Assembly (NCBI RefSeq): GCF_019679455.1
Contig: NZ_JAIEZQ010000001.1
Span: 682,001-746,000 of the forward strand
DNA length: 64,000 nt
From: Nocardioides jiangsuensis
Lineage (GTDB): Bacteria; Actinomycetota; Actinomycetes; Propionibacteriales; Nocardioidaceae
Direction: 5' to 3'
Below, piece after piece: positions 1-18,532 of this stretch; positions within the stretch are counted from its first letter, which is position 1; every line of letters begins with the position of its first letter. Both the position numbers and the translations under genes were made by a program. Below the pieces are notes generated by a model. That model had not been told where the DNA came from and searched no databases. It saw only the letters and a list, made by a program, of their open reading frames with translations.

Positions 1-866
1 TCGACACCGCCGACGTCTACGCCAACACGGCCGCCGAGACCGTCCTCGGCAAGGCCCTCAAGGACGAGCGCCGCGAGGGGCTGGAGATCTTCACCAAGGT
101 CTACTGGCCCACCGGCCCCGGCAGGCACAACGACCACGGGCTCTCCCGCAAGCACATCATGGAGTCGATCAACGGCTCCCTGAAGCGGCTCGGCACCGAC
201 TACGTGGACCTCTACCAGGCGCACCGGTTCGACTACGAGACCCCGCTCGAGGAGACGATGGAGGCCTTCGCCGACGTCGTGCACTCGGGCAAGGCGCACT
301 ACATCGGCGTCTCGGAGTGGACCGCCGAGGAGATCCGGCGCGGCCACGCCCTGGCCCGCGAGCTGCGGATCCCGTTCGTGTCGAACCAGCCGCAGTACAA
401 CATGATCTGGCGGGTCATCGAGCCCGAGGTGGTGCCCACCTCGGAGGAGCTCGGCATCGGCCAGATCGTCTGGTCCCCGATCGCGCAGGGCGTGCTCACC
501 GGCAAGTACAAGCCGGGCCAGGACGCGCCCGCCGGCTCGCGCGCCACCGACGCCAAGGGCGGGTCGGACATGATCTCGCGCTGGATGAAGGACGACGTGC
601 TCAGCCGCGTCCAGCAGCTGCAGCCGATCGCCGACGAGGCCGGCCTCTCGATGGCCCAGCTCGCCGTCGCCTGGGTGCTGCAGAACCCCAACGTGTCCGC
701 GGCGATCATCGGCGCCTCGCGTCCCGAGCAGGTCACCGAGAACGTCAAGGCCGCCGGGGTGAAGATCGAGGACTCCGCGATGAAGCAGATCGACGAGATC
801 CTCGACGGCGTCATCGAGCGCGACGCGTCGAAGACCGTCTCCCCGCAGCGCCGCGAGTTCGGCTGA
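1..866 (+). CDS. Aldo/keto reductase, Kv-beta-like (5' end outside window)
   Basis: NADPH-dependent aldo/keto reductase, probably cytosolic; the substrate cannot be predicted. The reading frame is open from base 3, so the N-terminus lies off the left edge. The visible part has the family's catalytic tetrad in order: Asp and Tyr in TADVYANTAAE, Lys in FTKVYWP, and His in VDLYQAHRFD. The conserved later blocks GVSEW, NQPQYNM, SPIAQGVLTGKY and IIGASRPEQV are also present, which is typical of the voltage-gated potassium channel beta-subunit-like AKR group. It converges on the formaldehyde dehydrogenase gene, with a strong shared hairpin between them. Related proteins often reduce aldehydes and methylglyoxal, but no such assignment is made here. 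Confidence 0.9.
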   Translation, partial: DTADVYANTAAETVLGKALKDERREGLEIFTKVYWPTGPGRHNDHGLSRKHIMESINGSLKRLGTDYVDLYQAHRFDYETPLEETMEAFADVVHSGKAHYIGVSEWTAEEIRRGHALARELRIPFVSNQPQYNMIWRVIEPEVVPTSEELGIGQIVWSPIAQGVLTGKYKPGQDAPAGSRATDAKGGSDMISRWMKDDVLSRVQQLQPIADEAGLSMAQLAVAWVLQNPNVSAAIIGASRPEQVTENVKAAGVKIEDSAMKQIDEILDGVIERDASKTVSPQRREFG

Positions 867-890
867 GCCGGGCTCGGCCCGTACGACGGA

Positions 891-924
891 CGCCGGCGCC
901 GGCCCTCATGGGCCGGCGCCGGCG
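891..924. terminator. Bidirectional terminator hairpin between convergent genes
   Basis: A perfect 15-bp G+C stem (891-905 with 910-924) closes a four-base TCAT loop. On the plus strand it is followed by CCTCGTTTCT, a weak T tract. It lies between the stop of the aldo/keto reductase and the stop of the formaldehyde dehydrogenase gene on the other strand, so it can serve both. Confidence 0.75.
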
Positions 925-954
925 CCTCGTTTCTCCCCGGGTGCGTCCGCTCGC

Positions 955-2166
955 TCAGGCGACCATGTTGTGCGGGTCGATCACGTACTTCTTCGCAGCT
1001 CCCTTGTCGAACTCCCGGTAGGCGGCCGGAGCGTCGTCCAGGCCGATCCTGGCGGCGTTGACCGCCTTCGCGATGTGCGCCTTGTCGGCCAGGATCAAGT
1101 TCATCAGCTGCCGGTTGTAGCGCTTGACCGGGCACTGTCCGGTCGTGAACGAGTGCGACTTGGCCCAGCCGAGACCCAGACGCACGCCGATCTGGCCGAC
1201 CTTGGCGTTCTCGTCGATGCCGCCCGGGTCCCCGGTGACGTACAGGCCGGGGATGCCCAGCGAGGCACCCGCCCGCGAGATGGACATGATGTCATTGAGC
1301 ACCGTCGCGGGCGCCTCGGCGGCGTCGGCCCCGTGACCACGCGCCTCGAAGCCGACCGCGTCGACGGCGGCGTCCACCTCCGGCTCCCCCAGGATCTGCT
1401 CGATCATGTCCACCAGCTCGTTGCCCGAGCTCAGGTCGACGGTCTCGCAGCCGAAGCTCTTCGCCTGTGCGAGGCGCTCGGCGTTCATGTCACCGACGAT
1501 CACGACCGAGGCGCCGAGCACCTGCGCGGAGTACGCGGCCGCCAGGCCCACGGGACCCGCCCCGGCGACGTACACGGTGGAACCGGTGGTGGTCCCGGCC
1601 GTGTAGGCGCCGTGGTAGCCCGTCGGGAAGATGTCGGAGAGCATCGTCAGGTCGAGGATCTTCTCCAGCGCCTGGTCACGGTCGGGGAACTTCAGCAGGT
1701 TGAAGTCCGCGAAGGGCACCATGACGTACTCCGCCTGCCCCCCGATCCACCCACCCATGTCGACGTACCCGTAGGCGGCCCCGGCGCGGGCCGGGTTCAC
1801 GTTGAGACAGACGCCGGTCTTGCCCTCGTTGCACATCCGGCAGCGCCCGCAGGCGATGTTGAACGGCACCGAGCAGATGTCGCCCTCCTTCACGAAGAGC
1901 ACGTCCTCCCCGACCTCGACCACCTCGCCGGTGATCTCGTGGCCCAGGCTCTGACCGACGGGTGCGGTGGTGCGGCCACGGACCATGTGCTGGTCGCTGC
2001 CGCAGATGTTCGTGGTGACCAGCTTGAGGATCGCGGCGTGCGGGGCCTTCTTCTTCAGGCCCAGGCCGTTGACCACGTCCTCGGGCAGCTCGAGCTTCGG
2101 GTAGTCGACGGCCTCGACCGCGACCTCCCCAGGACCCTTGTAGACGACTACGCGGTTCCCCGTCAT
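955..2166 (-). CDS. fdhA: Glutathione-independent formaldehyde dehydrogenase
   Basis: Zinc- and NAD-dependent medium-chain dehydrogenase that oxidises formaldehyde to formate without a thiol cofactor (Pseudomonas putida FdhA type). The 403 residues match the family length. Visible features are the catalytic-zinc block NICGSDQHMVRGR, GHEITGEVVEVGEDV, the four-Cys structural zinc lobe CGRCRMCNEGKTGVC, and the Rossmann motif VAGAGPVGLAA. The ATG has AAAGGAA about 6 nt upstream on the minus strand. The aquaporin gene lies 82 bp upstream on the same strand and may share its transcript, which would place a small-solute channel next to aldehyde detoxification. A related aldehyde or alcohol substrate cannot be excluded. 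Confidence 0.88.
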   Translation of the reverse strand: MTGNRVVVYKGPGEVAVEAVDYPKLELPEDVVNGLGLKKKAPHAAILKLVTTNICGSDQHMVRGRTTAPVGQSLGHEITGEVVEVGEDVLFVKEGDICSVPFNIACGRCRMCNEGKTGVCLNVNPARAGAAYGYVDMGGWIGGQAEYVMVPFADFNLLKFPDRDQALEKILDLTMLSDIFPTGYHGAYTAGTTTGSTVYVAGAGPVGLAAAYSAQVLGASVVIVGDMNAERLAQAKSFGCETVDLSSGNELVDMIEQILGEPEVDAAVDAVGFEARGHGADAAEAPATVLNDIMSISRAGASLGIPGLYVTGDPGGIDENAKVGQIGVRLGLGWAKSHSFTTGQCPVKRYNRQLMNLILADKAHIAKAVNAARIGLDDAPAAYREFDKGAAKKYVIDPHNMVA

Positions 2167-2248
2167 GGAGATTCCTTTCGTTGCCAGTGCGTCGGGGCAC
2201 TGCGGTGGTTGTGTGCTGTCGTGCGGTGCGTGCTCGGCGGTGCGGGGT

Positions 2249-3010
2249 TCAGCTCTCCTCTCCCGGGCTCGGTGTGTAGGACTCCTCGGCCGCCGGGATC
2301 TCCGCGGCGCGGGTCTGGGCGACGAAGTCGAAGACGAGGACGGCGGCGACCGCCCCGAACAACGGGCCGATGAAGTAGACGAGGAGCTGAGCCCAGTCGG
2401 GCCCGTCCCCGAAGATCGCGAGGGTGACGTAGGGGCCGAAGGTGCGCGCCGGGTTCAGCGAGCCGCCGGTGAGCGGGGCGATCAGCAGGATCGCGGCGGT
2501 CACGGCCAGCCCGATGATCAGCCCGGCCCAGCCCAGGGGCGCCTGCGAGTTGACCGCGAGCGCCATCACGGCGAAGAGCAGCAGGAACGTGCCGGCGGCC
2601 TCGGCCGCCATGCCCTGGGCGAAGGACACCCCCTCGCCGAGCGAGGTCGCGCCGAGCCCGAGATCAGCCGCGCCGGTGCCGAACACCGCCACCACGGCGA
2701 ACGAGCCGACCACCGCGCCCACGACCTGCGCGAGCACGTAGGGCACGACCTCGGCCCACGGGAAGCGCCGGGTCACGGCGAGGGCGAGGGTGACCACGGG
2801 GTTGATGTGCGCCCCGGAGACCGGTCCGAACCCGTAGATGACGACGGCGACCACGACGCCGAAGGCCAGCGAGATGAACCCGAGCCCCGCGTAGTCCAGC
2901 TCGCCTCCGCCGAGCGTGAGGGCCGCGACCACCGAGCCTGTGCCCACGAGGACGAGCAGGGCGGTGCCGACCGCCTCGGCCACGATGCGCCTGGTCAAGG
3001 TCGCCTGCAT
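2249..3010 (-). CDS. MIP-family channel (aquaporin/glycerol facilitator)
   Basis: Six-helix membrane channel of the aquaporin superfamily, 253 aa. The two half-helix motifs are present, but the first is SGAHINPVVTLA (NPV instead of NPA) while the second is canonical, GGSLNPARTFGP. Hydrophobic segments in between match the usual inverted-repeat topology. I start at MQATLTRR because the minus strand has GGGGGAG about 8 nt before this ATG; a further upstream in-frame ATG would add 29 residues unlike the family. The gene lies just upstream of formaldehyde dehydrogenase on the same strand, so water, glycerol or a C1 compound are all possible cargoes. Aquaporin identity is firm; solute is unknown. 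Confidence 0.87.
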   Translation of the reverse strand: MQATLTRRIVAEAVGTALLVLVGTGSVVAALTLGGGELDYAGLGFISLAFGVVVAVVIYGFGPVSGAHINPVVTLALAVTRRFPWAEVVPYVLAQVVGAVVGSFAVVAVFGTGAADLGLGATSLGEGVSFAQGMAAEAAGTFLLLFAVMALAVNSQAPLGWAGLIIGLAVTAAILLIAPLTGGSLNPARTFGPYVTLAIFGDGPDWAQLLVYFIGPLFGAVAAVLVFDFVAQTRAAEIPAAEESYTPSPGEES

Positions 3011-3173
3011 CTGGACCACTCCCCCGTGGAGCCGTGTCAGGGCGGGTCGTCGGGACGACCCCGGCGGGCTGTGACGTGCGTCACTCCCGCTTGGCACGCT
3101 AACCGCTGGTCCGCAGCCCTACAAGGGGGCGGTCGCCCGAGGGGGCCCGGCGCGGGCTCGGGCCGGGGGACGC

Positions 3174-4343
3174 TCAGTAGGTGCGGCCGCGCTGGCGCAC
3201 CCACAGTGCGAGCAGCGGGTCGACGAACCGCCACAGGGCCATGTCGCCGTCGCGCGTCACGTGCTGGCCCTCCTTGGCGAGCTCGCGCAGCGCGCTCTGC
3301 AGCGTCGCGCGCGAGGTCTCCAGACGCCGCGCGGTCGTCGTGCCGGTGGGCGAGTCGCCGTCGGCCAGCGCCACGAGCACCGCCTTCTTCCCGCCCGACA
3401 GCCCGTCCCAGACCGCCTGGTGCGCCTCGTTGGTCATGGACAGCGCCCGTCGTACGACGGCGTCGGCGAGCGCGATCTCCTCGACCTCGGCCCCCTCGGG
3501 CAGCGTGGTCGTCCCCTGGGCGCGCGCGGAGAGCTCGCGGTGCAGCAGGTGCGCGAGCAGCATCGTGCGCTGCGGGTGGCCGGCGGCGGTGGACATCAGC
3601 GGCGCGAGCGCGCCGACCGGATCCTCGCCGAGCTCCTCGAACCGCTCGCTGAGCTCGACCAGCACGTCGTCGAGGGGCAGCGGCCCGAGCTCGAGCGGCT
3701 CGGCCTGGCCGTAGAGCGGCCGCTCCCGGTCGCTGAACAGCTTGCGCATCAGCGACGGCTGCGAGCCGGCGTAGATGTAGACGGCCGCGTCCCCGTGGTA
3801 CTGCACGTGCGAGCGCAGCAGCCCGTCGAGCGACGTGCCGGCGGTGAGCAGGTCCTGGAACTCGTCGAAGACCACGAGCGTGGGGATGCGGTCGCGCTCG
3901 AACAGGGTCAGCGGCAGGTCGAGCAGCTCCGCCGCGGCGGTCTGGGTCGCCTCCGGGCTGGGCACCCGCTGCCGCGGGCCGAGGGTCAGCCCCGGACCGG
4001 CCGGGGTCAGCGAGAGGCCGAGGCGGCTGCCGAGCGAGTCGAGGTGCGCGCGCAGCCTGCCGTCGCGGAGCCGGGAGTACGACGAGGCGATCCGCACGCA
4101 GATCTCGGCGAGCGACGTGACGCCGTACATGTCGACGTGCACGGTGCGCCAGCCCGCGCCCTGGAGCCCCTGGGCGTGCGCGAGCAGCAGGGAGGTCTTG
4201 CCGAAGCGCCGGGGGCCGGCCAGGCGGACGTGCACGCGCTCCTCGGCGGCCTGGCTCAGGCGGCGGAGCTCCTCGCGACGGTCGATCAGGGCGTCCGGGG
4301 CGATCGGGGTCTCGAAGGGGAAGGGGCGCAGGGTGGCCGGCAT
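3174..4343 (-). CDS. P-loop ATPase with C-terminal winged helix
   Basis: ATP-binding protein of the archaeal-ATPase/AAA-like group (COG1672-like), 389 aa. Walker A is GPRRFGKTS at about residues 43-51 and a Walker B-like strand reads TLVVFDEFQDLL near residue 155. The C-terminal 70 residues look like a winged helix (KKAVLVALADGD to ALRELAKEGQHV). Such proteins often act as switch ATPases or regulators with unknown partners; no partner gene is adjacent. The start is fixed by a near-ideal promoter whose -10 lies 6 nt before the ATG, implying a leaderless mRNA. The upstream DNA is unusually AT-rich and carries a palindrome and phased repeats. Biological role unknown. Confidence 0.75.
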   Translation of the reverse strand: MPATLRPFPFETPIAPDALIDRREELRRLSQAAEERVHVRLAGPRRFGKTSLLLAHAQGLQGAGWRTVHVDMYGVTSLAEICVRIASSYSRLRDGRLRAHLDSLGSRLGLSLTPAGPGLTLGPRQRVPSPEATQTAAAELLDLPLTLFERDRIPTLVVFDEFQDLLTAGTSLDGLLRSHVQYHGDAAVYIYAGSQPSLMRKLFSDRERPLYGQAEPLELGPLPLDDVLVELSERFEELGEDPVGALAPLMSTAAGHPQRTMLLAHLLHRELSARAQGTTTLPEGAEVEEIALADAVVRRALSMTNEAHQAVWDGLSGGKKAVLVALADGDSPTGTTTARRLETSRATLQSALRELAKEGQHVTRDGDMALWRFVDPLLALWVRQRGRTY

Positions 4344-4349
4344 TCTTTT

Positions 4350-4378
4350 ACTCTACGGGATTCGTATATACGAAGCAA
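4350..4378 (-). promoter_or_regulatory. Leaderless promoter with a palindromic operator in the spacer
   Basis: Read on the minus strand: TTGCTT (4373-4378), a 17-nt spacer, TAGAGT (4350-4355), 6 nt, then the ATG of the ATPase gene. The spacer is largely filled by the perfect 14-bp palindrome TTCGTATATACGAA (4361-4374). A dimeric repressor bound here would block RNA polymerase. Confidence 0.65.
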
Positions 4379-4429
4379 TACGCTTTCGCATGGCTGCGTC
4401 AATACGACTCCACGGACCTGCGGAACGGG

Positions 4430-4486
4430 TGACGTCTCGACGGCTCACGACTGACGCCTCGACGCCGAACGAGTGACGCCTCGACG
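4430..4486. repeat. Three 13-bp direct repeats phased at 22 bp
   Basis: TGACGTCTCGACG (4430-4442), TGACGCCTCGACG (4452-4464) and the same sequence again (4474-4486) recur with an exact 22-bp period, about two helical turns. They lie between the ATPase promoter and the end of the small gene at 4493. They look like an array of regulator-binding half sites on one DNA face. Confidence 0.6.
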
Positions 4487-4492
4487 AGGGGG

Positions 4493-4756
4493 TCAGGTGT
4501 TGGCGTGGAGGCTCATCGGGCCGTAGACCTCGCGGTCGCCCTCGAACAGGGTCACCGCGTCCACGCCGTCGTCGAGGAGCTCGCGCCAGGCCTCCCCCAC
4601 CCACGACTCCGCGTCGCTCTGCGAGGGGAACTCCTGCGCCGCGTCGGACGCGCGGACCTCGTTCCCGGAGGCGTCCTCGAGGCGCCACCACCAGCGCGAG
4701 GACGACCCGGAGGCGGACTCACCAGGGAAACCGGAAGGCTCGAGAGAGTTCGTCAT
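4493..4756 (-). CDS. Small hypothetical protein, 87 aa
   Basis: Hydrophilic 87-residue protein with no motif I can name; it contains a WWWRLED block and an acidic C-terminal half (ELLDDGVDAVTLFEGDREVYGP). It looks like a small soluble actinobacterial protein of unknown function. Its start is supported by a leaderless promoter: on the minus strand TAGGCT lies exactly 6 nt before the ATG (TAGGCT at 4763-4768). It is divergent from the cobalamin riboswitch operon. Confidence 0.65.
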   Translation of the reverse strand: MTNSLEPSGFPGESASGSSSRWWWRLEDASGNEVRASDAAQEFPSQSDAESWVGEAWRELLDDGVDAVTLFEGDREVYGPMSLHANT

Positions 4757-4831
4757 GTGGCGAGCCTAACGCCGGAAATCCGCGAGACCCCTTTGACGCC
4801 CCGCAGGCGGCATGCGACTGTCTACCCATCA

Positions 4832-4927
4832 CTGCCCTCGTGTGGGAAAGCCGGTCAGAAGCCGGCGCTGACCCGCAACCGTGGTCCGAGCGTGAGCTCG
4901 GAGAGCCGGAAGACCAGACGAGTGCAG
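4832..4927 (+). ncRNA. Cobalamin riboswitch aptamer
   Basis: The B12-box signature GCCGGCGCTGACCCGCAACC occurs at 4861-4880, preceded by GTGGGAAAGCCGGTC and followed by GAGAGCCGGAAGACCAG, all in the usual order of a cobalamin riboswitch. Closing arms CTGCCCTCGT (4832-4841) and ACGAGTGCAG (4918-4927) pair at 9 of 10 positions. About 120 nt separate it from the first gene of the ECF/cob operon. I see no clear intrinsic terminator there, so the expression platform may work on translation. Boundaries are estimated by eye. Confidence 0.88.
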
Positions 4928-5046
4928 CGGCTCCCACCATCCGTCGAGGTCTACGGGACGGAGCCGGATCAGGGCAGGTGCGGACGTCGTCCGGCAGGCC
5001 CGGCGGTCCGGTCTCGTCATGTGCACCGCCGCAAGAAAGGGCCATC

Positions 5047-5757
5047 GTGGCCAGCTCTCCCCTCCGCCGCATCGTCGGCGCCCTCGCCTCCGCGCTCCTC
5101 GCCTGCCTCGCCGTCACCGGCTTCGCGGGCGCGGCCCACGCCGAGGACGGCTACCAGTACTGGAACTACTTTCACCTCGAGAACGACGCCTGGGAGTTCT
5201 CCATGGACGGCCCGGCCGAGTACCAGCCGAAGGACGGCGCCGTCGAGGCGTTCCGCTACGGCACCTCCACCGAAACCCAGGGCATCGAGCCCCGGGTCGA
5301 CCTGGCCGAGGTCAGCTTCGACACCGTCTGCGCCGACCAGGAGGCCGCCGCGGGTGAGAAGCGGGTCGCCGTCGTGCTCGACTACGGCACCGACGAGGGC
5401 AACGGCAACCCGCCGCAACCGCGTGCCGAGTGCGCGGTCGTCGACCAGTTGGCCAGCACCCAGGACATCCTCGGCGAGATCACGGAGGTCCGGGTCGAGT
5501 CCGGGCTCACCTGCGCCATCGACGGCTACCCCGCCACCGGCTGCGGCGAGCCGGTGAAGAACGCCCAGGTCCCCGCCGACGAGCAGGCCGTCGCCTTCAC
5601 CCTGCCCTCCGACGACTCCGCGGCGGCCGACGAGGGCTCCGCCGCCACCGCCGAGGACGACGGCGGCACCGTGTGGCCGCTGGTCGGCGTCGGCGCGGCC
5701 GTGGTCGTGCTCGGCGGCGGCGCCTACGCGCTGAGCCGCCGCAACCGGGCCGTCTGA
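5047..5757 (+). CDS. Secreted, membrane-anchored protein of the B12-regulated operon (SCO2322-like)
   Basis: 236-aa exported protein and the first gene under the cobalamin riboswitch. The N-terminus is a signal peptide (RRIVGALASALLACLAV, cleavage probably after AAHA). The ectodomain has four scattered Cys. The C-terminus has an acidic Ala-rich linker, one transmembrane helix (VWPLVGVGAAVVVLGGGAY) and a short basic tail; there is no LPXTG. The GTG start is 4-5 nt after GAAAGG. It resembles a protein found at the head of Streptomyces ECF operons (SCO2322 family, from memory). By context it may be a surface partner that captures or presents a corrinoid or cobalt to the ECF transporter, which is inference only. 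Confidence 0.72.
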   Translation: MASSPLRRIVGALASALLACLAVTGFAGAAHAEDGYQYWNYFHLENDAWEFSMDGPAEYQPKDGAVEAFRYGTSTETQGIEPRVDLAEVSFDTVCADQEAAAGEKRVAVVLDYGTDEGNGNPPQPRAECAVVDQLASTQDILGEITEVRVESGLTCAIDGYPATGCGEPVKNAQVPADEQAVAFTLPSDDSAAADEGSAATAEDDGGTVWPLVGVGAAVVVLGGGAYALSRRNRAV

Positions 5758-5776
5758 GCCGACGCCTGCCACGCCG

Positions 5777-6907
5777 ATGCGCCCCCAGAACCTGGTCACC
5801 TTCCCCCGGATCCTGCATCCGGGGGCCTGGTGGCTGTGGGCGCTCGGCCTGGCCGCGGCGGCCAGCCGCACGCTGAACCCGGTGCCGCTGCTGCTGATCC
5901 TCGCGGTCACCGGGTTCGTGGTCGCCGCCCGCCGCAGCGACGCCGCGTGGGCGCACTCCTACGGCGCCTTCCTCAAGCTCGCGCTGCTGATCATCGCGGT
6001 GCGCATCGTCTTCCAGTCCCTGCTCTCCTCGGGGTCCCAGGGGCCGACCGTCCTGTTCACGCTCCCGGAGGTCCCGGTCGCGGGCAGCACCGGCCTCAAG
6101 CTCGGCGGCGTGGTCAGCCTGGAGGCCGTGCTCCGCGCGTTCTACGAGGGTCTCCAGCTGGCCACGATCCTGTGCTGCGTCGGCGCCGCGAACTCCCTGG
6201 GCAGCGCGCGCCGGCTGCTCCGCTCGGTCCCCGGGGCGCTCTACGAGATAGGAGTCGCGGTGGTCATCGCGCTCACGTTCGCGCCCCAGCTCGTCACCGA
6301 CGCCGCCCGGGTCCGCGCCGCCCACCGGCTCCGCGGACAGAGCGGCGGCGGGCTGCGCGCCCTCAAGCGCCTGGCGATGCCGGTGCTCGAGGGTGCCCTG
6401 GACCGCTCCGTCGAGCTGGCCGCGGCCATGGACTCCCGGGGTTACGGGCGTACGACGGACGCCGGCCGCGTCTCGCGCCGGCTGACCGGCCTCCTGGTCT
6501 TCGGCGGACTGCTGGGCGTGTGCGTGGGGGTCTACGGCCTGCTCTCCGGCACGAGCGCGGGCTGGCTCGGCATGCCGGCCCTGCTGACCGGGTCCGTGCT
6601 CGCGGCCGGGGGGATCTACTTCGGCGGCCGCCGTACCGGCCGGTCCCAGTACCGCCCGGACCCGTGGGCGCTGCCCGAGTGGCTGGTGGCCGGCAGCGGC
6701 CTGGTCGCCGCGGTCACCATGTTCGTCACCCTCGCGGTCGACCCCGCTGCCCTGGTGCTGGCCAGCGTCACCGCGGTCCCGCCGGTCCCCCTGCTCGCCT
6801 GCCTGGGCATCGGTGTGGCGGCACTGCCGGCGTTCCTCGCCCCTCCCCTGCCGCGTCCCGCGCCCGCGGCGCCGGCGCGCACCGAGACCGTGGAGGTGGC
6901 CGCGTGA
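5777..6907 (+). CDS. ECF transporter transmembrane component (EcfT)
   Basis: Integral membrane coupling subunit of an energy-coupling-factor importer, 376 aa. It has several hydrophobic helices plus the two EcfT coupling-helix motifs that contact the ATPases, seen as RAAHRLRGQ and AAMDSRGYGR. It is somewhat longer than average because of extra C-terminal helices and a Pro/Ala tail. It lies 19 bp after the secreted-protein gene, and its TGA overlaps the GTG of the ATPase gene, so translation is coupled. Position behind a cobalamin riboswitch points to uptake of B12, a corrinoid precursor or cobalt. Confidence 0.88.
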   Translation: MRPQNLVTFPRILHPGAWWLWALGLAAAASRTLNPVPLLLILAVTGFVVAARRSDAAWAHSYGAFLKLALLIIAVRIVFQSLLSSGSQGPTVLFTLPEVPVAGSTGLKLGGVVSLEAVLRAFYEGLQLATILCCVGAANSLGSARRLLRSVPGALYEIGVAVVIALTFAPQLVTDAARVRAAHRLRGQSGGGLRALKRLAMPVLEGALDRSVELAAAMDSRGYGRTTDAGRVSRRLTGLLVFGGLLGVCVGVYGLLSGTSAGWLGMPALLTGSVLAAGGIYFGGRRTGRSQYRPDPWALPEWLVAGSGLVAAVTMFVTLAVDPAALVLASVTAVPPVPLLACLGIGVAALPAFLAPPLPRPAPAAPARTETVEVAA

Positions 6908-8535
6908 TCGAGTTCGACGGCGTCACCATCACCTTCTCCGGCGAGAGCACCCCGGTGCTCCGCGACGTCACCCTGGCCATCCCCGAGGGCGAGCTGTGCC
7001 TGGTCGTCGGGCGCACCGGGTCCGGCAAGACCACGCTGCTGCGCGCGATCAACGGCCTGGTCCCGCACTTCTCGGGCGGCACCCTCGCCGGCCGGGTCGT
7101 CGTGGACGGCCGCGACACCCGCGACCACCGGCCCCGTGACCTGGCCGAGGTGGTCGGCTTCGTCGGGCAGGATCCGCTTGCCGGCTTCGTGACCGACACC
7201 GTCGAGGACGAGCTCGCCTACGGCATGGAGTCGCTCGGGCTGCCCGCCGACGTGATGCGCAAGCGGGTGGAGGAGACCCTCGACCTGCTCGGGCTCGCGG
7301 AGCTCCGCGACCGGCAGCTGACGGACCTCTCCGGCGGCCAGCAGCAGCGCGTCGCGATCGGCGCCGTGCTCACCACGCACCCCCGGGTGCTGGTGCTCGA
7401 CGAGCCCACCTCCGCCCTCGACCCGCTCGCCGCGGAGGAGGTGCTCGCCACCCTCCAGCGCCTCGTGCACGACCTCGGGCTCACCGTCGTCCTCGCGGAG
7501 CACCGCCTCGAGCGCGTCGTCCAGTACGCCGACCGGGTGGTCCTGGTCCCCGGCGGCGGGAGGCCGGTGTCCGACGGGACGCCCGACGAGATGCTCCAGC
7601 ACTCTCCCGTCGCACCGCCGGTCGTGGAGCTCGGCCGGGTCGCCGGATGGCAGCCGCTGCCGCTCTCGGTGCGCGACGCCCGGCGCAGGGCCGCCCCGCT
7701 CCGCGCCCTGCTCGACGGGCTGGTCCCCCCGGGCCACGAGGCGGCCGACGGCGCCGGTGAGGTCGTCGCCGGGCTGTCGGACGTGGTCGCCGGCTACCGG
7801 CAGGTTCCCGTGCTCAAGGGCGTCTCCGTGACGCTGCGCGGCGGCGAGGTGGTCGCCCTGATGGGCCGCAACGGCGCCGGGAAGTCCACGCTGCTCAAGA
7901 CCCTGGTCGGCATGCGGAAGCCGTCGAGCGGGCGGGTCCGGGTCGGGGGCGAGGATCCCGCCGCGCTCAAGCCGGCACGGCTGCTGCGACACGTCGGCCT
8001 GGTGCCGCAGGTCCCCGGCGACCTGCTCTACGAGTCCACCGTCGCCCGCGAGTGCACGCAGGCCGACAAGGACGCCGGGGTCCCGTCGGGCACCACCGTC
8101 GCCCTGTTCGAGCGACTCTCGCCCGGCGTCCCGCCCGGGCAGCACCCGCGCGACCTGTCGGAGGGACAGCGGCTGACCCTGGCGCTGGCCATCGTGCTCG
8201 CCGCGCGCCCACCGCTGGTGCTCCTCGACGAGCCGACCCGCGGCCTCGACTACACGGCCAAGCACCGCCTCGTGGAGATCCTGCGGGACCTGGCATCGCG
8301 CGGGCACGCGGTCATGCTCGCCACGCACGACGTGGAGCTGGTCGCGGAGGTCGCCACCCGGGTCGCCGTACTCGCCGATGGCGAGGTCGTCGCCGACGGG
8401 CCGGTGCGCGACGTGGTGGTCTCCTCCCCCGCGTTCGCGCCGCAGGTCGCGAAGATCCTCGCGCCGCAGACCTGGCTCACCCCGACCGACGTGGCGGTGG
8501 CGCTCGCCGGCGTCACCACGGTGTCGCGGCCGTGA
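6904..8535 (+). CDS. Fused ECF transporter ATPases (EcfA-EcfA')
   Basis: Two ABC ATPase domains in one 543-aa chain, replacing the usual separate EcfA1 and EcfA2. Domain 1: Walker A GRTGSGKTT, signature LSGGQQQRVAIG, Walker B VLVLDEPTSALD, followed by an AEH switch. Domain 2: Walker A GRNGAGKST, a variant signature LSEGQRLTLAL, Walker B VLLDEPTRGLD, and an ATHD switch. The GTG start overlaps the ecfT stop codon (GTGA), and its own stop overlaps the next GTG. It powers import together with EcfT and the S component encoded next. Confidence 0.9.
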   Translation: MIEFDGVTITFSGESTPVLRDVTLAIPEGELCLVVGRTGSGKTTLLRAINGLVPHFSGGTLAGRVVVDGRDTRDHRPRDLAEVVGFVGQDPLAGFVTDTVEDELAYGMESLGLPADVMRKRVEETLDLLGLAELRDRQLTDLSGGQQQRVAIGAVLTTHPRVLVLDEPTSALDPLAAEEVLATLQRLVHDLGLTVVLAEHRLERVVQYADRVVLVPGGGRPVSDGTPDEMLQHSPVAPPVVELGRVAGWQPLPLSVRDARRRAAPLRALLDGLVPPGHEAADGAGEVVAGLSDVVAGYRQVPVLKGVSVTLRGGEVVALMGRNGAGKSTLLKTLVGMRKPSSGRVRVGGEDPAALKPARLLRHVGLVPQVPGDLLYESTVARECTQADKDAGVPSGTTVALFERLSPGVPPGQHPRDLSEGQRLTLALAIVLAARPPLVLLDEPTRGLDYTAKHRLVEILRDLASRGHAVMLATHDVELVAEVATRVAVLADGEVVADGPVRDVVVSSPAFAPQVAKILAPQTWLTPTDVAVALAGVTTVSRP

Positions 8536-9329
8536 GGGCCACCGACCTCGTCCCGCTGCGCGGCCGGTCCGCGCTGGCGCTGGCGGTGGTCTCCGCGGTC
8601 GGCCTGGTCGGGTTCTGCTGGCCGTTCTTCGTCGCCCCGGGCAGCGCGCTGGACAGCTCCCACTCCGGTGACGCACCGTTCCTGTTCGTGGCGATCCTGC
8701 CGCTGCTCGCCGCGATCGTGCTCTCCGAGCTGACCTCGGGCGGGATGGACGCCAAGGCGGTGGCGATGCTCGGCATGCTGTCGGCCGTCGGCGGCGCGCT
8801 GCGGGCCCTCGGGCCGGGCACCGCCGGGCTGGAGCCGAGCTTCGCGGTGATCATCCTCGGCGGCCGGGTCTTCGGGCGCGGCTTCGGGTTCGTGCTCGGG
8901 GCCACCACCCTGTTCACCGGGTCGCTGATCACCGGCGGCGTGGGGCCGTGGCTGCCGTTCCAGATGATGGCCGCGGGCTGGGTCGGCTTCTTCGCCGGCT
9001 GCCTGCCGCGCGCCGAGGGCCGCACCGAGGTGGGCCTGCTCGCCGGCTACGGGTTCGTCTCCGGGCTGGTGTTCGGCATGGTGATGAACATCTGGTTCTG
9101 GCCGTTCGCCTCCTACGGCCCCGAGGTCAGCTACGTCGCCGGCGACCCGCTCGCGGCCAACCTGCAGCGGTACGGCGTGTTCTACCTGACCACCTCCCTG
9201 CTGTGGGACCTCGGCCGCGCCACGATGTCGCTGCTCGTGCTCGCCCTCGCCGGGAGCGCGCTGCTCCGAGCCCTGCGGCGGGCCGCGCGACGCGCCGCGT
9301 TCGACGTACCGGTGGTGTTCCAGCGATGA
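8532..9329 (+). CDS. ECF transporter substrate-binding (S) component
   Basis: Very hydrophobic 265-aa membrane protein with about six helices. Its sequence context identifies it as the substrate-specific S subunit: same operon, overlapping starts, directly after the fused ATPases. Features include LSELTSGGMDAKAVAMLGMLSA, a Gly-rich helix pair, and FGMVMNIWFWPF. A riboswitch and cobU/cobS in the same operon favour a corrinoid (cobalamin or cobinamide, CbrT-like) over cobalt, whose importer would normally include CbiM/CbiN homologues, which are absent. Substrate is inference. Confidence 0.8.
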   Translation: MRATDLVPLRGRSALALAVVSAVGLVGFCWPFFVAPGSALDSSHSGDAPFLFVAILPLLAAIVLSELTSGGMDAKAVAMLGMLSAVGGALRALGPGTAGLEPSFAVIILGGRVFGRGFGFVLGATTLFTGSLITGGVGPWLPFQMMAAGWVGFFAGCLPRAEGRTEVGLLAGYGFVSGLVFGMVMNIWFWPFASYGPEVSYVAGDPLAANLQRYGVFYLTTSLLWDLGRATMSLLVLALAGSALLRALRRAARRAAFDVPVVFQR

Positions 9330-10720
9330 CCCGCACCGACGGCTCCCGGCTGGACGTGGTGGCGCTCGGCACCGGGTCGGCCGACGGCTGGCCCAACCCG
9401 TTCTGCGGCTGCGCGTCGTGCACCGCGCAGCGGGCGTCCGGGCGGGTGCGCGGGCAGACCTCCGCGCTGGTCGACGGCCGGCTGCTGCTCGACTGCGGCC
9501 CGGAGACCCCGCGCGCCGTCGAGCGCCTCGGCCTCGACCTCACCGGGCTGCGGCACGTGCTGATCACCCACCGGCACCCCGACCACTGCGCGCCGGCGTT
9601 CCTGCTGTTCCGGTCCTGGGTCGGCGACCCGCCGCTCGACGTGCTCGGCCCGCCGGAGGTCGTCGAGGCCTGCCGGATGTGGGTCGCCCCGGACTCCCCC
9701 GTGAACTTCGTGACGGTGCGGCCGGGCGACCGGCACCGGGTCGGCGGGTACGACGTCCGCGTCCTCGACGCGCGGCACGGCAGCCCGGGCTCGGCGGTGC
9801 TGTACGACGTCACCGCCCCGGGCGGCCGGCTCCTCTACGCCACCGACACCGGGCCGCTGCCCGACGCGACGGTGGCCGCCGTCCGCGGCGCCGCCTTCGA
9901 CCTGGTGCTGATGGAGGAGACCTTCGGGGACTTCACCGAGCACGGCACCGACCACCTCGACCTGCCCGCCTTCGCCGACCAGGTGCGCCGGCTGCGCGAG
10001 GCCGGTGCGGTCACCGAGCGCACCGACGTGGTCGCGGTCCACCTCTCGCACCACAACCCGCCCGGCCCGGAGCTGGCGCGGCGGCTGGCCGCGTGGGGCG
10101 CCCGCACCGTCGACGACGGCGCGCACCTGCCGGCGCGGCCCGAGGCGGTCGGCGCGCCGCCCGTCGGTCCGCGCGCCGGCCTGCCGCGGCGGACGCTCGT
10201 GCTGGGTGGCGCCCGGTCGGGCAAGTCCCGGGAGGCGGAGCGGCTGCTCGCCGCCGAGGCCGACGTCACCTACGTCGCCACCTCCTACCCCTCCGGCAGC
10301 GGCGACGCCGAGTGGGACGAGCGGTTGCGCGCGCACCGTGACCGGCGTCCCGCGCACTGGGCGACGCTCGAGACCCTCGACCTGGTCGCGCTGCTGGACG
10401 CGCCCGGCGGCCCGCTGCTCGTGGACTGCCTGACCCTGTGGCTCACCCGGGTGATGGACCGGCACGACGCCTGGGACGACGACACCTGGGCGGCCTCCGG
10501 GGAGAAGGCGGTGCTGGCCGAGGTCGACGAGCTCGTCGCCGCCTGGCGCCGTACCTCCCGCCGGGTGGTCGCGGTGTCGAACGAGGTGGGCCAGGGCGTC
10601 GTGCCCGAGACCACGGCGGGTCGCCGCTTCCGCGACCTGATGGGCCGGGTCAACACCCGGGTCGCCGCCGAGACCGAGGACGTGCGCTGGTGCGCGGCGG
10701 GTCGCGTCGTCGGCCTGTGA
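9326..10720 (+). CDS. Metallo-beta-lactamase-fold hydrolase fused to CobU
   Basis: 464-aa two-domain protein. Residues 1-265 are a PhnP-like metallo-beta-lactamase fold: GTGSADG, a Cys cluster CGCASC, metal site HRHPDH, then DTGPL and HLSHHN. Residues from about 288 are adenosylcobinamide kinase/adenosylcobinamide-phosphate guanylyltransferase (CobU): P-loop LGGARSGKS, VATSYPSG, VDCLTLWL, and VSNEVGQGVVPE. CobU phosphorylates adenosylcobinamide and makes AdoCbi-GDP, the substrate that CobS (next gene) joins to alpha-ribazole. The N-terminal domain could supply a phosphatase or phosphodiesterase step of lower-ligand or corrinoid salvage; this is inference. ATGA overlap with the S-component gene. 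Confidence 0.9.
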   Translation: MTRTDGSRLDVVALGTGSADGWPNPFCGCASCTAQRASGRVRGQTSALVDGRLLLDCGPETPRAVERLGLDLTGLRHVLITHRHPDHCAPAFLLFRSWVGDPPLDVLGPPEVVEACRMWVAPDSPVNFVTVRPGDRHRVGGYDVRVLDARHGSPGSAVLYDVTAPGGRLLYATDTGPLPDATVAAVRGAAFDLVLMEETFGDFTEHGTDHLDLPAFADQVRRLREAGAVTERTDVVAVHLSHHNPPGPELARRLAAWGARTVDDGAHLPARPEAVGAPPVGPRAGLPRRTLVLGGARSGKSREAERLLAAEADVTYVATSYPSGSGDAEWDERLRAHRDRRPAHWATLETLDLVALLDAPGGPLLVDCLTLWLTRVMDRHDAWDDDTWAASGEKAVLAEVDELVAAWRRTSRRVVAVSNEVGQGVVPETTAGRRFRDLMGRVNTRVAAETEDVRWCAAGRVVGL

Positions 10721-11541
10721 CTGCGGTGCGCTACCCACCTGGCATGGACGCCCTCCGGCTCGCGTTCGGCACGCTGACCGTGCTGCCCACACCGCCGCCC
10801 CGCGTGGTGGACCGGCGGGTCGGGTCCTGGGCCATGACCCTGGCCCCCCTCGTCGGACTGGTGCTCGCGGTGCCCGCCGGGCTGCTCCTCTGGCTGGCCG
10901 CCGGCGACCGCACCGCGACGCCCGCCCTACAGCCGGCGCCGGCGGCTGCGCTCACGGTCGCCCTGCTCGCCGTGCTCACCCGGGCGATGCACCTGGACGG
11001 GCTCGCGGACACCGCCGACGGCCTGGGGTCCGGCAAGCCCGCACCGCAGGCGCTGGAGGTGATGCGGAAGGGCGACGTCGGGCCGTTCGGCGTGGTGACG
11101 CTGGTGCTCGTGCTGCTGGTGCAGGTGCTCGCGCTCGCGGAGCTCGTCGCCGAGGGGCACGGGGTCGCAGCGCTCGTGCCGGCCCTGGTGGCGAGCCGGC
11201 TCGTCCTACCCGTGGTCTGCCTGCGCGGGGTGCCGGCGGCGCGCCGCGACGGGCTCGGTCAGGCCGTCGCGGGGACGGTGTCGTGGGGGCAGCTGCTGCT
11301 GGCGGTGGGGCTGGCCGCGGCGGTGACCACCCTCGCGGCGCTGGTCACCCCGGGGCCGCAGTCGCTCGAGCCCGGGGTCCTTCTGCGGACCGGCGCCGCG
11401 GTGGCGGTCGCGCTCGCCGCCGGGCTGCTCCTGCTCCGCCGCTGCGTGGTCCGCCTCGGCGGCGTGACCGGCGACGTGCTGGGCGCGTGCGTCGAGGTGA
11501 CGTTCACCGTGGCGCTGGTCGCGCTGACGGTCCTGCTCTGA
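10717..11541 (+). CDS. cobS: Adenosylcobinamide-GDP ribazoletransferase (cobalamin synthase)
   Basis: Membrane enzyme that joins AdoCbi-GDP with alpha-ribazole (or its 5'-phosphate) to complete the nucleotide loop of cobalamin. It is 274 aa with about six hydrophobic segments. Diagnostic motifs: MHLDGLADTADGLG near residue 90, VMRKGDVGPFGV, and VTGDVLGACVE close to the C-terminus. The GTG start overlaps the preceding stop (GTGA); an internal ATG nine codons later is an alternative. Last gene of the riboswitch operon. No cobT is seen nearby. Confidence 0.93.
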   Translation: MTAVRYPPGMDALRLAFGTLTVLPTPPPRVVDRRVGSWAMTLAPLVGLVLAVPAGLLLWLAAGDRTATPALQPAPAAALTVALLAVLTRAMHLDGLADTADGLGSGKPAPQALEVMRKGDVGPFGVVTLVLVLLVQVLALAELVAEGHGVAALVPALVASRLVLPVVCLRGVPAARRDGLGQAVAGTVSWGQLLLAVGLAAAVTTLAALVTPGPQSLEPGVLLRTGAAVAVALAAGLLLLRRCVVRLGGVTGDVLGACVEVTFTVALVALTVLL

Positions 11542-11556
11542 CGCCGGACGGCGCGG

Positions 11557-12681
11557 TCAGCTCTCGCGGACGCCGGGGGTCACGAACGGGGGCCGGGTGA
11601 CCGTGAAGACCTCGCGGCGCCCGCGTACGTCGACCGACACCTCCTGCCCCTCGCCGACCTGCGTAGCGATGAGCGCCAGGCCGATGCCCTTGCGCAGGGT
11701 CGGGGAGAACGTCCCCGAGGTGACCTCGCCGAGCGGCACATCGGACACCAGCAGCACCCGCATGCCCGGTCGCGGGATGCCCCGGCCGGTGGCGACGAGC
11801 CCGCGCAGCACGCGCCGCGGCCCGGCCTCCTTCTCCTCCAGCAGCACCGACCGGCCCCAGAACCGGTCCTTCTTCCAGCCGACCGCCCAGCCGAGGCGCG
11901 CCTCGTTGGGCGTGACGTCGCGGGTGATGTCCTGCCCGTGCAGCGGGTAGCCCATCTCGGTGCGCAGCGTGTCGCGGGCGCCGAGGCCGCAGGCGGTGAC
12001 GCCGTACTTCTCCCCCGCGGCGAACAGGGTGTCCCACAGGAGCCCGACCACCTCGTCGGGCACGACCAGCTCGTAACCGCGCTCGCCGGTGTAGCCGGTG
12101 CGGCAGACCACCACGGGGGTGCCGTCGAACTCGGCCTCGACGAACGACATGTACTCGTGGCCGACGGGGAGGCCCGCGGCCTGGAGCAGCTCGTCGGACC
12201 GCGGCCCCTGGACCGCGAGGATCGAGTGCGTGTCGTGGTTGTCGTCGATCTCGATCCCGTCCGGCGCCTCGGCGGCGAGGCGTCGTACGACCTCGGCGGT
12301 GTTGGCGGCGTTGGGGACCAGGAAGACCCGCTCGTCGCTGTGCAGGTAGACGATCAGGTCGTCGACGATGCCGCCGGTCTCGGGGTCGCAGCACAGGGTG
12401 TACTGCGCCTTGCCGGGGGCGATCTTGGCGAGGTCGTTGGTGAGCGTCGAGTTGATCAGCGCGGCGGCGCCCGGGCCGCGGACGACCACCTTGCCCAGGT
12501 GGCTGACGTCGAACACGCCGACCGCCTCGCGGACCGCCGTGTGCTCCTTGACCACGCCGGTGTACTCCAGCGGCATCTCCCACCCGCCGAACTCGGCGAG
12601 CTTGGCCCCGAGCGCCACATGGCGGTCGTGCAGGGCGGACTGACGGAGCGCGGAACCGCGGCGAGACTCGACAGGACGCAT
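11557..12681 (-). CDS. gcvT: Aminomethyltransferase, glycine cleavage T protein
   Basis: T protein of the glycine cleavage system, 374 aa. It transfers the methylene group from aminomethyl-lipoyl H protein to tetrahydrofolate, releasing ammonia. Typical features are [24 protein letters not shown] at the N-terminus (given here only as a position guide, residues 13-36), [34 protein letters not shown] and the C-terminal GCV_T_C domain. No gcvH or gcvP is adjacent. On the minus strand TAGGTT lies 6 nt before the ATG, so the mRNA is probably leaderless. The 3' end lies 15 bp from the cobS stop, convergent. Confidence 0.93.
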
Positions 12682-12774
12682 GCGGGGAACCTACCTCAGT
12701 GGGATCGGGGGCCGACGGCGGCTAGCATGCCGGGAACGCAACTGCGATTTACAGGACATGGGGGTCAACCCGAC
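12682..12774. promoter_or_regulatory. Divergent promoter region gcvT / pepA
   Basis: A minus-strand -10 TAGGTT (12688-12693) sits 6 nt before the gcvT ATG. A plus-strand -10 TAGCAT (12723-12728) would start the pepA transcript about 40 nt before its GTG, leaving room for the purine-rich GGGGGT at 12760-12765 as ribosome binding site. No operator is evident. Confidence 0.5.
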
Positions 12775-14277
12775 GTGACGAGCTACAGCCTGCACAAGGG
12801 CGCAGCCGACAAGACCAAGTGCGACGTGGTGGTCGCCGGCGTGGTCCGGACCAAGAAGGGTCTGGAGGCTGCTCCCGGAGGCGAGGGGATCGCGTCGGCG
12901 TACGGCCGGAAGTTCCGCCCGCTGCTGTCGACGGTGGGCTTCGAGGGCAAGCCGGGCGAGGTCGCGAAGATTCCCACCGGCGGCACCCTGCGCTCGCCGC
13001 TGATGATCCTCGTGGGCCTCGGTGAGGCCGAGAATCTGACGCCGGAGAAGGTCCGCCGCGCGGCCGGTGCCGCGGCGCGCTCCGTCTCCAACGCCGCGAA
13101 CGTCGCGCTGGCGCTGCCGACCCCGGACGCCGACCACGTGCGCGCGGTCGCCGAGGGCTTCCTGCTCGGCACCTACGCGTTCACGGAGTTCAAGACCAGC
13201 AAGAGCGACGAAGCGCCGGGTGAGGTCGTCGTGCTCACCGACCTGGCCCGGAACAAGGAGGCCGTGACCGCGCTGGAGACCGCGCAGGTCGTCGCCGCCG
13301 CCACGGCCCTCACCCGCGACTGGGTGAACACTCCCCCGGGCGACTTCACCCCGGAGAAGTTCGCCGCCGCGGTGACGCAGACCAAGAAGGAGAAGAAGGC
13401 CTCCAAGGTGACCGTGAAGGTGACCGACGCGGCCACGCTCGAGGCCGAGGGCTGCGGCGGCATCATCGGGGTCGGCCGCGGGTCGGCGAACCCGCCGCGA
13501 CTGGTGCAGCTCACCTACAAGCCGCGCGGCGCGAAGACGCACCTGGCCTTGGTCGGCAAGGGCATCACCTACGACTCGGGCGGCCTCTCGATCAAGCCCG
13601 GTCCGTCGATGATGACGATGAAGTGCGACATGGCCGGCGCCGCCGCCGTGGTCGCGGCGACCTTCGCGATCGCCGAGCTCGGCCTGCCCATCGCGGTCAC
13701 CACGTTCGCGCCGATGGCCGAGAACATGGTGTCGGGCAGCGCGACCCGGCCCGGCGACGTGCTCACGATGTACGGCGGCAAGACCGTCGAGGTGCTCAAC
13801 ACCGACGCCGAGGGCCGGCTCATCCTCGCGGACGCCCTGGTGAAGGCGACCGAGAACGAGCCCGACGTGATCGTCGACGTGGCGACGCTGACCGGGCACT
13901 GCGTGGTGGCGCTCGGCGACCGCGTGGCGGGCCTGCTCGGCAACGACGACGAGCTCATCCACACGGTGCAGGCCGCCGCCGCCCGGGTCGGCGAGGCGCT
14001 GTGGCCGCTGCCGATCCCCGAGGAGATGCGCGAGAAGGTCCGCACCAACACCAAGGTGGCCGACCTGGCGCAGCACAACACCGAGCGGTGGGGCGGCGCG
14101 CTCTACGCGGCGGCGTTCCTGCGCGAGTTCGTGGGCGACACCCGGTGGGCGCACCTCGACATCGCGGGGCCGGCGTTCAACGGCCACGGCCCGCACGGGT
14201 ACACCCCGGCCGGTGGCACGGGCATGTCCGTGGCGACGCTGGTGGAGCTGGCGCGGGAGCTGTCCGAGAAGAAGTGA
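12775..14277 (+). CDS. pepA: Leucyl aminopeptidase (M17)
   Basis: Cytosolic two-metal aminopeptidase of family M17 that removes N-terminal residues from peptides, 500 aa from the GTG. The C-terminal catalytic domain has GKGITYDSGGLSIKP, KCDMAGAAAV, and the signature NTDAEGRLILADAL, with metal ligands Lys, Asp and Glu in place. The N-terminal domain begins SYSLHKGAADK. I choose GTG 12775 because it follows a G-rich stretch by about 9 nt and gives the usual length; the in-frame ATG at 12727 would place the start inside the predicted promoter. Function is housekeeping peptide turnover. Confidence 0.93.
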   Translation: MTSYSLHKGAADKTKCDVVVAGVVRTKKGLEAAPGGEGIASAYGRKFRPLLSTVGFEGKPGEVAKIPTGGTLRSPLMILVGLGEAENLTPEKVRRAAGAAARSVSNAANVALALPTPDADHVRAVAEGFLLGTYAFTEFKTSKSDEAPGEVVVLTDLARNKEAVTALETAQVVAAATALTRDWVNTPPGDFTPEKFAAAVTQTKKEKKASKVTVKVTDAATLEAEGCGGIIGVGRGSANPPRLVQLTYKPRGAKTHLALVGKGITYDSGGLSIKPGPSMMTMKCDMAGAAAVVAATFAIAELGLPIAVTTFAPMAENMVSGSATRPGDVLTMYGGKTVEVLNTDAEGRLILADALVKATENEPDVIVDVATLTGHCVVALGDRVAGLLGNDDELIHTVQAAAARVGEALWPLPIPEEMREKVRTNTKVADLAQHNTERWGGALYAAAFLREFVGDTRWAHLDIAGPAFNGHGPHGYTPAGGTGMSVATLVELARELSEKK

Positions 14278-14318
14278 CGTGCGGCTGAGCCCGCCGGAGC
14301 CGGCGGCTGGCCCGTGCG

Positions 14319-14345
14319 GCGTCGCGCCCTCTGAGGGTGCGGCGC
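14319..14345. terminator. Possible bidirectional hairpin between convergent genes
   Basis: An imperfect stem (11 of 13 positions plus a G-T wobble; arms 14319-14331 and 14333-14345, with the innermost pairs opening into a loop around TCTGA) lies between the pepA stop and the stop of the opposing small gene. There is no T tract, so the call is tentative. Confidence 0.35.
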
Positions 14346-14353
14346 GGTGCGGC

Positions 14354-14707: not shown

Positions 14708-14867
14708 TTCCACAGTGTGGCCCACCTTCCCAAGGATTCGCTGAACGTCGCCCCGTTTGCGCGGTCGGCGCCACGTCTTGAGGGCCGGTGTAGACATGGA
14801 CGGGATTGGTGGAAAGATGACCCCGGACAGGCGAACCCCTGACAGCTGAACATGACCGGAGGAACGG

Positions 14868-16256: not shown

Positions 16257-16307
16257 TCAAGACCACGACCAGCGAGCACCACAGCCGACAAGAAGCGAAG
16301 GAACGCA

Positions 16308-18212: not shown

Positions 18213-18230
18213 CCGGAAGTCCAGTCGTGG

Positions 18231-18265
18231 ACGACGCCCGCTGCCGACTCGGCAGCGGGCGTCGT
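18231..18265 (+). terminator. Terminator hairpin after sucB
   Basis: A perfect 15-bp stem (18231-18245 with 18251-18265) with loop GACTC begins 18 nt after the sucB stop. Only two T residues follow, so it resembles the T-poor hairpin terminators common in high-GC actinobacteria. Confidence 0.75.
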
Positions 18266-18300
18266 TGCGTCTCCGGACCTGCATGACGTCGACCCCGGGG

Positions 18301-18467: not shown

Positions 18468-18532
18468 GGTGGCGGTCGAGCAGATTTCTGGTCGAGGGAT
18501 GAAGCGTTCTGCGGCGAGCGATAGCTCGGAGG

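What the first reader, a model, noticed from the sequence alone, without database searches (positions are those of the whole stretch)
4344..4378. Consensus leaderless promoter with a perfect palindrome in its spacer
TTGCTT-N17-TAGAGT-N6-ATG is the best promoter in the window, and TTCGTATATACGAA sits within its spacer. Strong core plus blocking operator is a classic tightly repressed switch. The ATPase has its own winged helix and could be its own repressor.
Basis: seen in the sequence. Interest (0 to 1): 0.5.

Follow-up and report, generated by a model that had tools for sequence, protein, structure and literature searches.

The report
ATPase family with private tandem operators
The palindrome in this promoter is the visible edge of a double DNA-binding site that travels with a widespread family of ATPases of unknown role, which suggests that each of these proteins switches its own gene.

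Summary
What is conserved is larger: two tandem 20-bp dyads (YGTATKG-N6-CMATACR), 24 nt apart, over the -35 and spacer of a leaderless promoter. With spacing free, 11 of 13 related loci (window included) have their two best dyads exactly 24 nt apart; the other two have a weaker second copy over the start codon. 12 of 13 keep TANNNT-N6-8-start (controls 21 of 410). A search given no consensus finds the window's array (0 of 100 shuffles). Such arrays are enriched before this ATPase family (61 of 94 versus 48 of 397 control regions); the period is mostly 23-24 nt in Actinomycetota, 14-15 elsewhere. Letters tend to follow the protein, not the genome: Patulibacter's three copies carry three letterings, and only the window-like copy has the window's. 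The ATPase has a confident C-terminal winged helix and an SSO1545-like fold. Best reading: autoregulation by its own protein. Three half-sites in register also lie inside fdhD, upstream of sbcD, in 3 of 4 genomes of the genus. Binding and repression are inferred.

The parts
4363..4382 (-). Proximal dyad CGTATTGCTTCGTATATACG (12 of 14 positions of YGTATKG-N6-CMATACR); contains the -35 and part of the spacer
4387..4406 (-). Distal dyad CGTATTGACGCAGCCATGCG (13 of 14), 24 nt from the proximal one
4361..4374 (.).
4373..4378 (-). -35 TTGCTT; its first three bases are the end of the left arm of the proximal dyad
4350..4355 (-). -10 TAGAGT, 6 nt before ATG (leaderless arrangement)
3174..4343 (-). ATPase, 389 aa, AAA+/STAND fold of the 2QEN/SSO1545 type
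3225..3395 (-). C-terminal winged helix, residues 317-373
3270..3311 (-). Recognition helix, residues 345-358
4493..4756 (-). Neighbouring 87-aa gene; relatives of it lie in L020, L021, L022, L025 and L040; no Pfam or NCBIfam match

Best explanation
The ATPase regulates its own gene. Dimers bind through the C-terminal winged helix to two tandem 20-bp dyads that cover the -35 and the spacer of its leaderless promoter. Side-by-side binding, helped by the fixed 24-nt spacing, keeps RNA polymerase off and holds the ATPase at a low level; the nucleotide state or an unknown signal would release it. Shown: the array, its position over the promoter, its conservation and its travelling with the gene. 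Inferred: that the ATPase itself is the binder, that it represses rather than activates, that it binds as dimers, and the role of ATP.
For: Search for two tandem dyads with no consensus given finds the window array, 0 of 100 shuffles. Two best dyads, spacing not imposed, are 24 nt apart in 11 of 13 clade loci; in L021 and L034 the second copy overlaps the start codon and scores 11 and 10 of 14 when sought at 24 nt. TANNNT-N6-8-start in 12 of 13 versus 21 of 410 control ORFs under the same rule. In 13 genomes, 14 of 18 places with YGTATKG-N6-CMATACR at up to 1 mismatch are ATPase promoters. Family-wide: score 24 or more in 61 of 94 ATPase upstream regions versus 48 of 397 controls (Fisher 1.8e-24). 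Of those, 23 of 29 actinobacterial loci have period 23-24 and 29 of 32 distant loci period 15 (controls 5 and 8 of 48). Letters: Patulibacter L026/L160 (72% identical to the window) has GTATKG, its two paralogues (46-49% identical to L026) do not. wHTH model, pLDDT 92.7. No other pair of dyads in the own genome at up to 3 mismatches per dyad.
Against: No binding or expression data. 18 of 45 actinobacterial and 22 of 49 distant loci do not reach p 0.05 in the shuffle test. In the 13-locus clade the consensus-free search puts the 24-nt array first in 10 and reaches p 0.05 with it in 8; in L020, L021 and L034 it prefers something else. Some paralogues (L172, L182) score only 21. Lettering is not always private: L188 and L179, 30% identical and in one genome, both have GACGAA-type arms. 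Covariation of half-site with recognition helix beyond the rest of the protein is weak (partial r 0.19; r 0.10 among pairs under 35% identity). The studied relative by fold claim, IniR, is an activator (PMC5760070, passages).
Confidence: 0.7

Rival explanations
1. A separate transcription factor binds the array and the ATPase is merely its target.
For: Many regulators use dyads of this size over a -35 (recalled); no screen for such a factor was made. L188 and L179 share lettering within one genome.
Against: Lettering changes with the ATPase subtype and mostly differs between paralogues of one genome, while architecture is kept. In the own genome, hits at up to 3 mismatches (29 and 31) are fewer than with the reversed pattern (39 and 44), so no wide regulon. 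No recurrent neighbouring regulator among the clusters listed.
Confidence: 0.12
2. The array is an iteron-like replication site or mobile-element end, bound by an Orc1/Cdc6-like ATPase.
For: Orc1/Cdc6 are among the next fold matches; repeats beside an AAA+ gene; patchy distribution (13 of 341 genomes of the family) and different neighbours between genera.
Against: Array lies over the core promoter in the clade; only two dyads there; no match in 72,556 plasmid or 50,697 phage records, none confirmed in viral contigs. No test for a downstream partner repeat was made.
Confidence: 0.07
3. The protein binds the array but activates its own promoter, or uses the array to nucleate an oligomer, rather than repressing.
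For: Array period is nearly fixed per lineage; STAND relatives oligomerise (recalled); IniR is an activator (PMC5760070, passages).
Against: The -35 overlaps the proximal dyad, which usually means exclusion of polymerase (recalled).
Confidence: 0.16
4. The palindrome is a chance feature.
For: The window has 16 perfect 14-bp palindromes and the 14-mer is not in the three congeners.
Against: It overlaps a conserved tandem-dyad array; true of the 14-mer as a unit, not of the operator.
Confidence: 0.06

Closest known systems
Archaeal STAND/AAA+ ATPases SSO1545 (2FNA) and PABY2304 (2QEN)
   Same: Near whole-length fold: VIA Z 24.9 (328 residues, 3.6 A) and 27.4 (320 residues, 2.7 A)
   Different: 16% and 22% identity over the aligned residues; no operator for them was examined here; 'STAND' is recalled
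IniR of mycobacteria (PMC5760070; passages read)
   Same: AAA+ domain likened to SSO1545 plus a C-terminal DNA-binding domain; a section headed that it can bind the iniBAC promoter; acts on a single operon
   Different: 818 aa with a MalT-like domain; activates iniBAC; drug treatment did not raise transcription of iniR itself
Autorepressing plasmid RepA proteins (PMC4492784; title and start of abstract in a search listing only)
   Same: Title: RepA proteins specifically autorepress individual repABC operons
   Different: ParA family in an operon with repB and repC; no sequence comparison made here
Archaeal Orc1/Cdc6 initiators
   Same: AAA+ plus winged helix; fold match
   Different: Origin recognition (recalled); no origin feature was tested here

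Membership tests
SSO1545/2QEN-type ATPase fold | Near full-length structural match reaching into the winged helix | tested here: met
   2qen Z 27.4, 320 residues, 2.7 A, model 6..384; 2fna Z 24.9, model 5..383
SSO1545/2QEN-type ATPase fold | Conserved P-loop and Walker B residues within the aligned family | tested here: met
   R45, G48, K49, D160, E161 invariant in the 63 sequences of A1
Pfam PF01637 ATPase_2 | Score at or above gathering cut-off | tested here: not met
   28.2 bits against 33.2; 54 of 63 members of A1 match at E 0.001, their cut-offs not tallied
Autoregulated DNA-binding regulator | DNA-binding domain in the protein | tested here: met
   winged helix residues 317-373 in a model with mean pLDDT 92.7; Pfam HTH matches only weak
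Autoregulated DNA-binding regulator | Conserved operator over its own promoter | tested here: met
Autoregulated DNA-binding regulator | Direct binding and change of expression | not testable with these tools
   needs gel shift and reporter
Toxin-antitoxin operon | Conserved partner gene | tested here: not met
   No partner common to most of the 80 loci L020-L099; the listed clusters are synteny among close relatives or small mixed groups, one of them another ATPase in four loci
Iteron replicon or plasmid initiator | Presence on plasmids or phages | tested here: not met
   no tblastn match of the window protein at 1e-5; viral contigs none confirmed
Known defence system protein (PADLOC) | Match to a whole-protein model | tested here: inconclusive
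   best E 0.00095, to a CARF model over residues 295-358 only

The most novel reading that the evidence does not exclude
A bacterial family of solitary STAND-type ATPases forms a class of self-addressed switches: each member carries its own tandem-dyad array of lineage-specific pitch (14-15 or 23-24 nt), with letters that diverge along with the protein and usually differ among paralogues of one cell; the array serves both for autorepression and as the platform on which the ATPase assembles; some lineages gain remote sites, such as the one inside fdhD ahead of sbcD.
Probability: 0.3. Interest if true: 0.78.

Novelty: new variant of a known kind. Interest (0 to 1): 0.58.

Why it matters
The SSO1545-like ATPases have solved structures, but in the listings I saw (open-access library only; one search showed 20 of 400 papers; the SSO1545 structure paper is not held) no paper describes such operators or a DNA target of this group; IniR is the one relative by fold claim with a function. 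A predicted DNA site for many members gives a direct assay: bind, footprint, and vary ATP. It also offers a natural series of diverged winged-helix/half-site pairs for working out recognition rules, and candidate orthogonal switches for laboratory use.

Tried and rejected
Rejected: the 14-bp palindrome as the operator (not conserved; chance-level alone). E. coli-type consensus promoter (none in 1-20000; 7 of 12). Own-genome regulon by dyad pattern: no enrichment over the reversed pattern. Rfam in 4301-5300: nothing at gathering scores. Partner gene: none common to most loci. Plasmid, phage and viral homologues: none. fdhD/sbcD literature: the 8 of 33 papers listed gave nothing on such a site (listing only).

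Weak or against: the helix/half-site Mantel test is significant by permutation (p 0.0005) but small, and nearly vanishes among distant pairs; the 7-base half-sites used are those of the best-scoring register, not curated. In one search the spacing was set to 24. The YGTATKG consensus was read from the same 13 loci; only the search is independent of it. The first leaderless control (13 of 414) used a stricter rule than the clade; under the same rule it is 21 of 410. Control ORFs come from a crude ORF caller, so some control starts are wrong. On the second set I expected period 15 outside Actinomycetota; 14 also occurred, and I count 14-15 together there. After the filing check I lowered autoregulation from 0.72 to 0.70 for the shared lettering of L188 and L179, and raised the activation/oligomer rival from 0.15 to 0.16.

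Rows dropped: of 80 loci I used 69 (20 actinobacterial, 49 distant); dropped L029, L030, L041 (no N-terminus), L061 (like L060), L070, L079, L092, L099 (match starts inside), L074, L076, L093 (too near the edge). Of the phylum search I used 24 loci; dropped L104 (same contig as L036), L124, L128, L131 (no N-terminus). Loci on contigs already held by name (L003-L011, L017-L019, L100-L103) and the weak matches L012-L016 were not scored. L082 and L083 have the same upstream sequence and both count. In one search, L160-L171 were left out as already scored under other names, as was the fragment L184. L204, L208, L209, L210, L212, L172, L177, L182 were not given. In one search, 36 of 39 genomes had fdhD; the 30 loci fetched were scored, the matches of six more genomes were not. 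The last search gave almost no new loci and was not scored.

Full report
What was reported and what is there. The window is part of a 3.97-Mb genome whose nearest named relatives are Nocardioidaceae MAGs. On the minus strand the sequence reads TTGCTT-N17-TAGAGT-N6-ATG before a 389-aa ATPase, and TTCGTATATACGAA lies at 4361-4374. The 14-mer is unique in the genome up to 2 mismatches, yet as an object it is weak evidence: the window has 16 perfect 14-bp palindromes, and none of the three other genomes of the genus has this one.

The real unit. Upstream regions of relatives show repeated inverted repeats. I scored the last 110 nt before the ATPase for any two tandem dyads (7-base arms, gap 0-12, period 14-30) without giving any sequence. 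In the window the best solution is CGTATTGACGCAGCCATGCG-AAAG-CGTATTGCTTCGTATATACG, period 24, reached by 0 of 100 dinucleotide shuffles. Across the window, with the consensus of the next paragraph and spacings 20-29, this pair scores 25 of 28 and no pair elsewhere exceeds 20.

The near clade. I took 13 loci: window, L020-L028, L033, L034, L040. The consensus-free search puts a 24-nt array first in 10 of them and reaches p 0.05 with it in 8. With YGTATKG-N6-CMATACR, a consensus read from these loci, and spacing free, the two best matches are exactly 24 nt apart in 11. In L021 and L034 the second copy runs into the start codon and scores 11 and 10 of 14 at that spacing. A TANNNT box 6-8 nt before a start is found in 12 of 13 (not L028) against 21 of 410 control ORFs under the same rule. 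In the window the -35 overlaps the left arm of the proximal dyad and the right arm lies in the spacer, so a bound protein and polymerase would compete (inference). Patulibacter (L026), of another class by recall, shares lettering, spacing and leaderless arrangement. In 13 genomes, the pattern with up to 1 mismatch has 18 places, and 14 are ATPase promoters.

The whole family. The tandem-dyad score is 24 or more in 61 of 94 ATPase upstream regions and 48 of 397 upstream regions of other ORFs in loci L020-L099 (Fisher p 1.8e-24). Shuffle p of 0.05 or less: 27 of 45 actinobacterial and 27 of 49 distant loci. Among high scorers the period is 23 or 24 in 23 of 29 actinobacterial loci and 15 in 29 of 32 distant ones (Bacteroidales, Desulfobacterales, Lentisphaerae and others by their record titles); controls 5 and 8 of 48. 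In a second set of 40 loci (23 from the phylum of the Prevotella genome of L048, 17 paralogues from genomes of known loci), 25 score 24 or more, and 19 of these have period 14-15; the three high scorers from the Patulibacter and Solirubrobacter genomes have 22-23, the other three 17, 20 and 24. Loci are related, so these p-values overstate independence.

Letters and protein. Patulibacter has three copies: L160 (same gene as L026, 72% identical to the window) with GTATKG; L174 with GTACGGAT; L180 with GTACGC; the latter two are 49% and 46% identical to L026. L183 and L179, from two different genomes and 70% identical, both have ACGAA-type arms (by eye). Against strict privacy, L188, in the same genome as L179 and only 30% identical to it, also has GACGAA arms. 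Similarity of half-sites correlates with recognition-helix identity (r 0.42, 38 loci) and slightly beyond the rest of the protein (partial r 0.19, permutation p 0.0005), but only r 0.10 among pairs under 35% identity. The table (60 loci) suggests rules, such as SSVQ/SSVH helices with TACG arms, which I did not test.

The protein. AlphaFold2 with 63 rows gives pLDDT 92.7 with a winged helix at 317-373. Best solved relatives are 2QEN (Z 27.4) and 2FNA/SSO1545 (Z 24.9), then plant NLRs, Orc2/Orc1 and CED-4. Pfam ATPase_2 is below cut-off. The gene has no partner common to most loci: the clusters are mostly synteny among close relatives or small mixed groups, one of which is a second, different ATPase in four loci of unrelated lineages. 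The window gene sits beside the same 87-aa gene as in L020, L021, L022, L025 and L040; that gene was not found in the loci of the other genera tested. Distribution is patchy: 13 of 341 genomes in the family, 28 of 396 in a phylum sample at E 1e-10. No plasmid, phage or viral relative was found.

A second site. Outside ATPase promoters, the pattern hits one place each in G000, G002, G003 and G765: four hits, against 12 for the reversed pattern over the 13 genomes, so no enrichment as such. The first three are the same place inside fdhD, with a third half-site in register: CCATACG-N4-CGTATTG-N6-CCGTACG in the window's genome. Scored over 21 arm positions, G000, G002 and G003 give 20, 21 and 21; the other 27 of 30 fdhD genes fetched give 8-16, including the fourth congener G001 (16), G013 without the ATPase (16), and ATPase-bearing G005, G015, G004 (11, 10, 9). 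Of 280 aligned columns only 6 have all three genes ending in the same A or T; 5 of the 6 lie in columns 75-88 around the site, three of them in the arms. No fourth half-site is seen. fdhD is followed on the same strand by sbcD, and in G003 and G002 by an sbcC-like gene (for G003). I read this as a probable second target in three related species; shared descent and the FdhD motif keep it from being proof. The Patulibacter hit lies between vanR-like and vanH-like divergent genes (names by recall from the translations) and may be chance.

Mechanism and level of proof. Array, position, conservation and co-inheritance with the gene are shown. That the ATPase binds it is inferred from the letters tending to follow the protein and from its winged helix. 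Repression is inferred from overlap with the -35. Control by ATP or a signal is conjecture. That TANNNT close to the start marks leaderless actinobacterial genes is recalled.

Literature. The listings gave no report of such operators; coverage is partial. IniR (passages read) is the nearest studied relative by fold claim and is a dedicated activator, which warns against assuming repression.

Noticed in passing
L134:1501-1520 (G000:C1:92578-92597), L220, L221: Three operator half-sites in register inside fdhD, ahead of sbcD, in three of four congeners, written with rare T-ending codons.
   Followed up: yes
L258:2539-2558 (Patulibacter, G765:C97:12138): One-mismatch operator-like dyad between divergent vanR-like and vanH-like genes; may be chance.
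   Followed up: partly
window 955-3097: Glutathione-independent formaldehyde dehydrogenase (TIGR02819) and an aquaporin lie downstream of the ATPase here but gave no hit in the loci L020-L022.
   Followed up: partly
window 4820-5040: Looks by eye like a cobalamin riboswitch before an SCO2322-family gene and a CbiQ-like gene, but Rfam gives no match at gathering score.
   Followed up: partly
G759 (genome of L090): Nine copies of this ATPase in one genome; eight were fetched; their upstream arrays mostly differ, but L188 and L179 share GACGAA-type arms.
   Followed up: partly
L056, L061:7345-8595, L076, L093:3007-4263: A second, different ATPase family (GVRRCGKSS-type P-loop) near the studied ATPase in four loci of unrelated lineages.
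   Followed up: no
L033 (G004:C47): The ATPase gene appears frameshifted or split in this relative while its upstream array is present.
   Followed up: no
window 28008 (+): The only other TTGNNN-N16-18-TANNNT-N6-8-start arrangement in the window.
   Followed up: no
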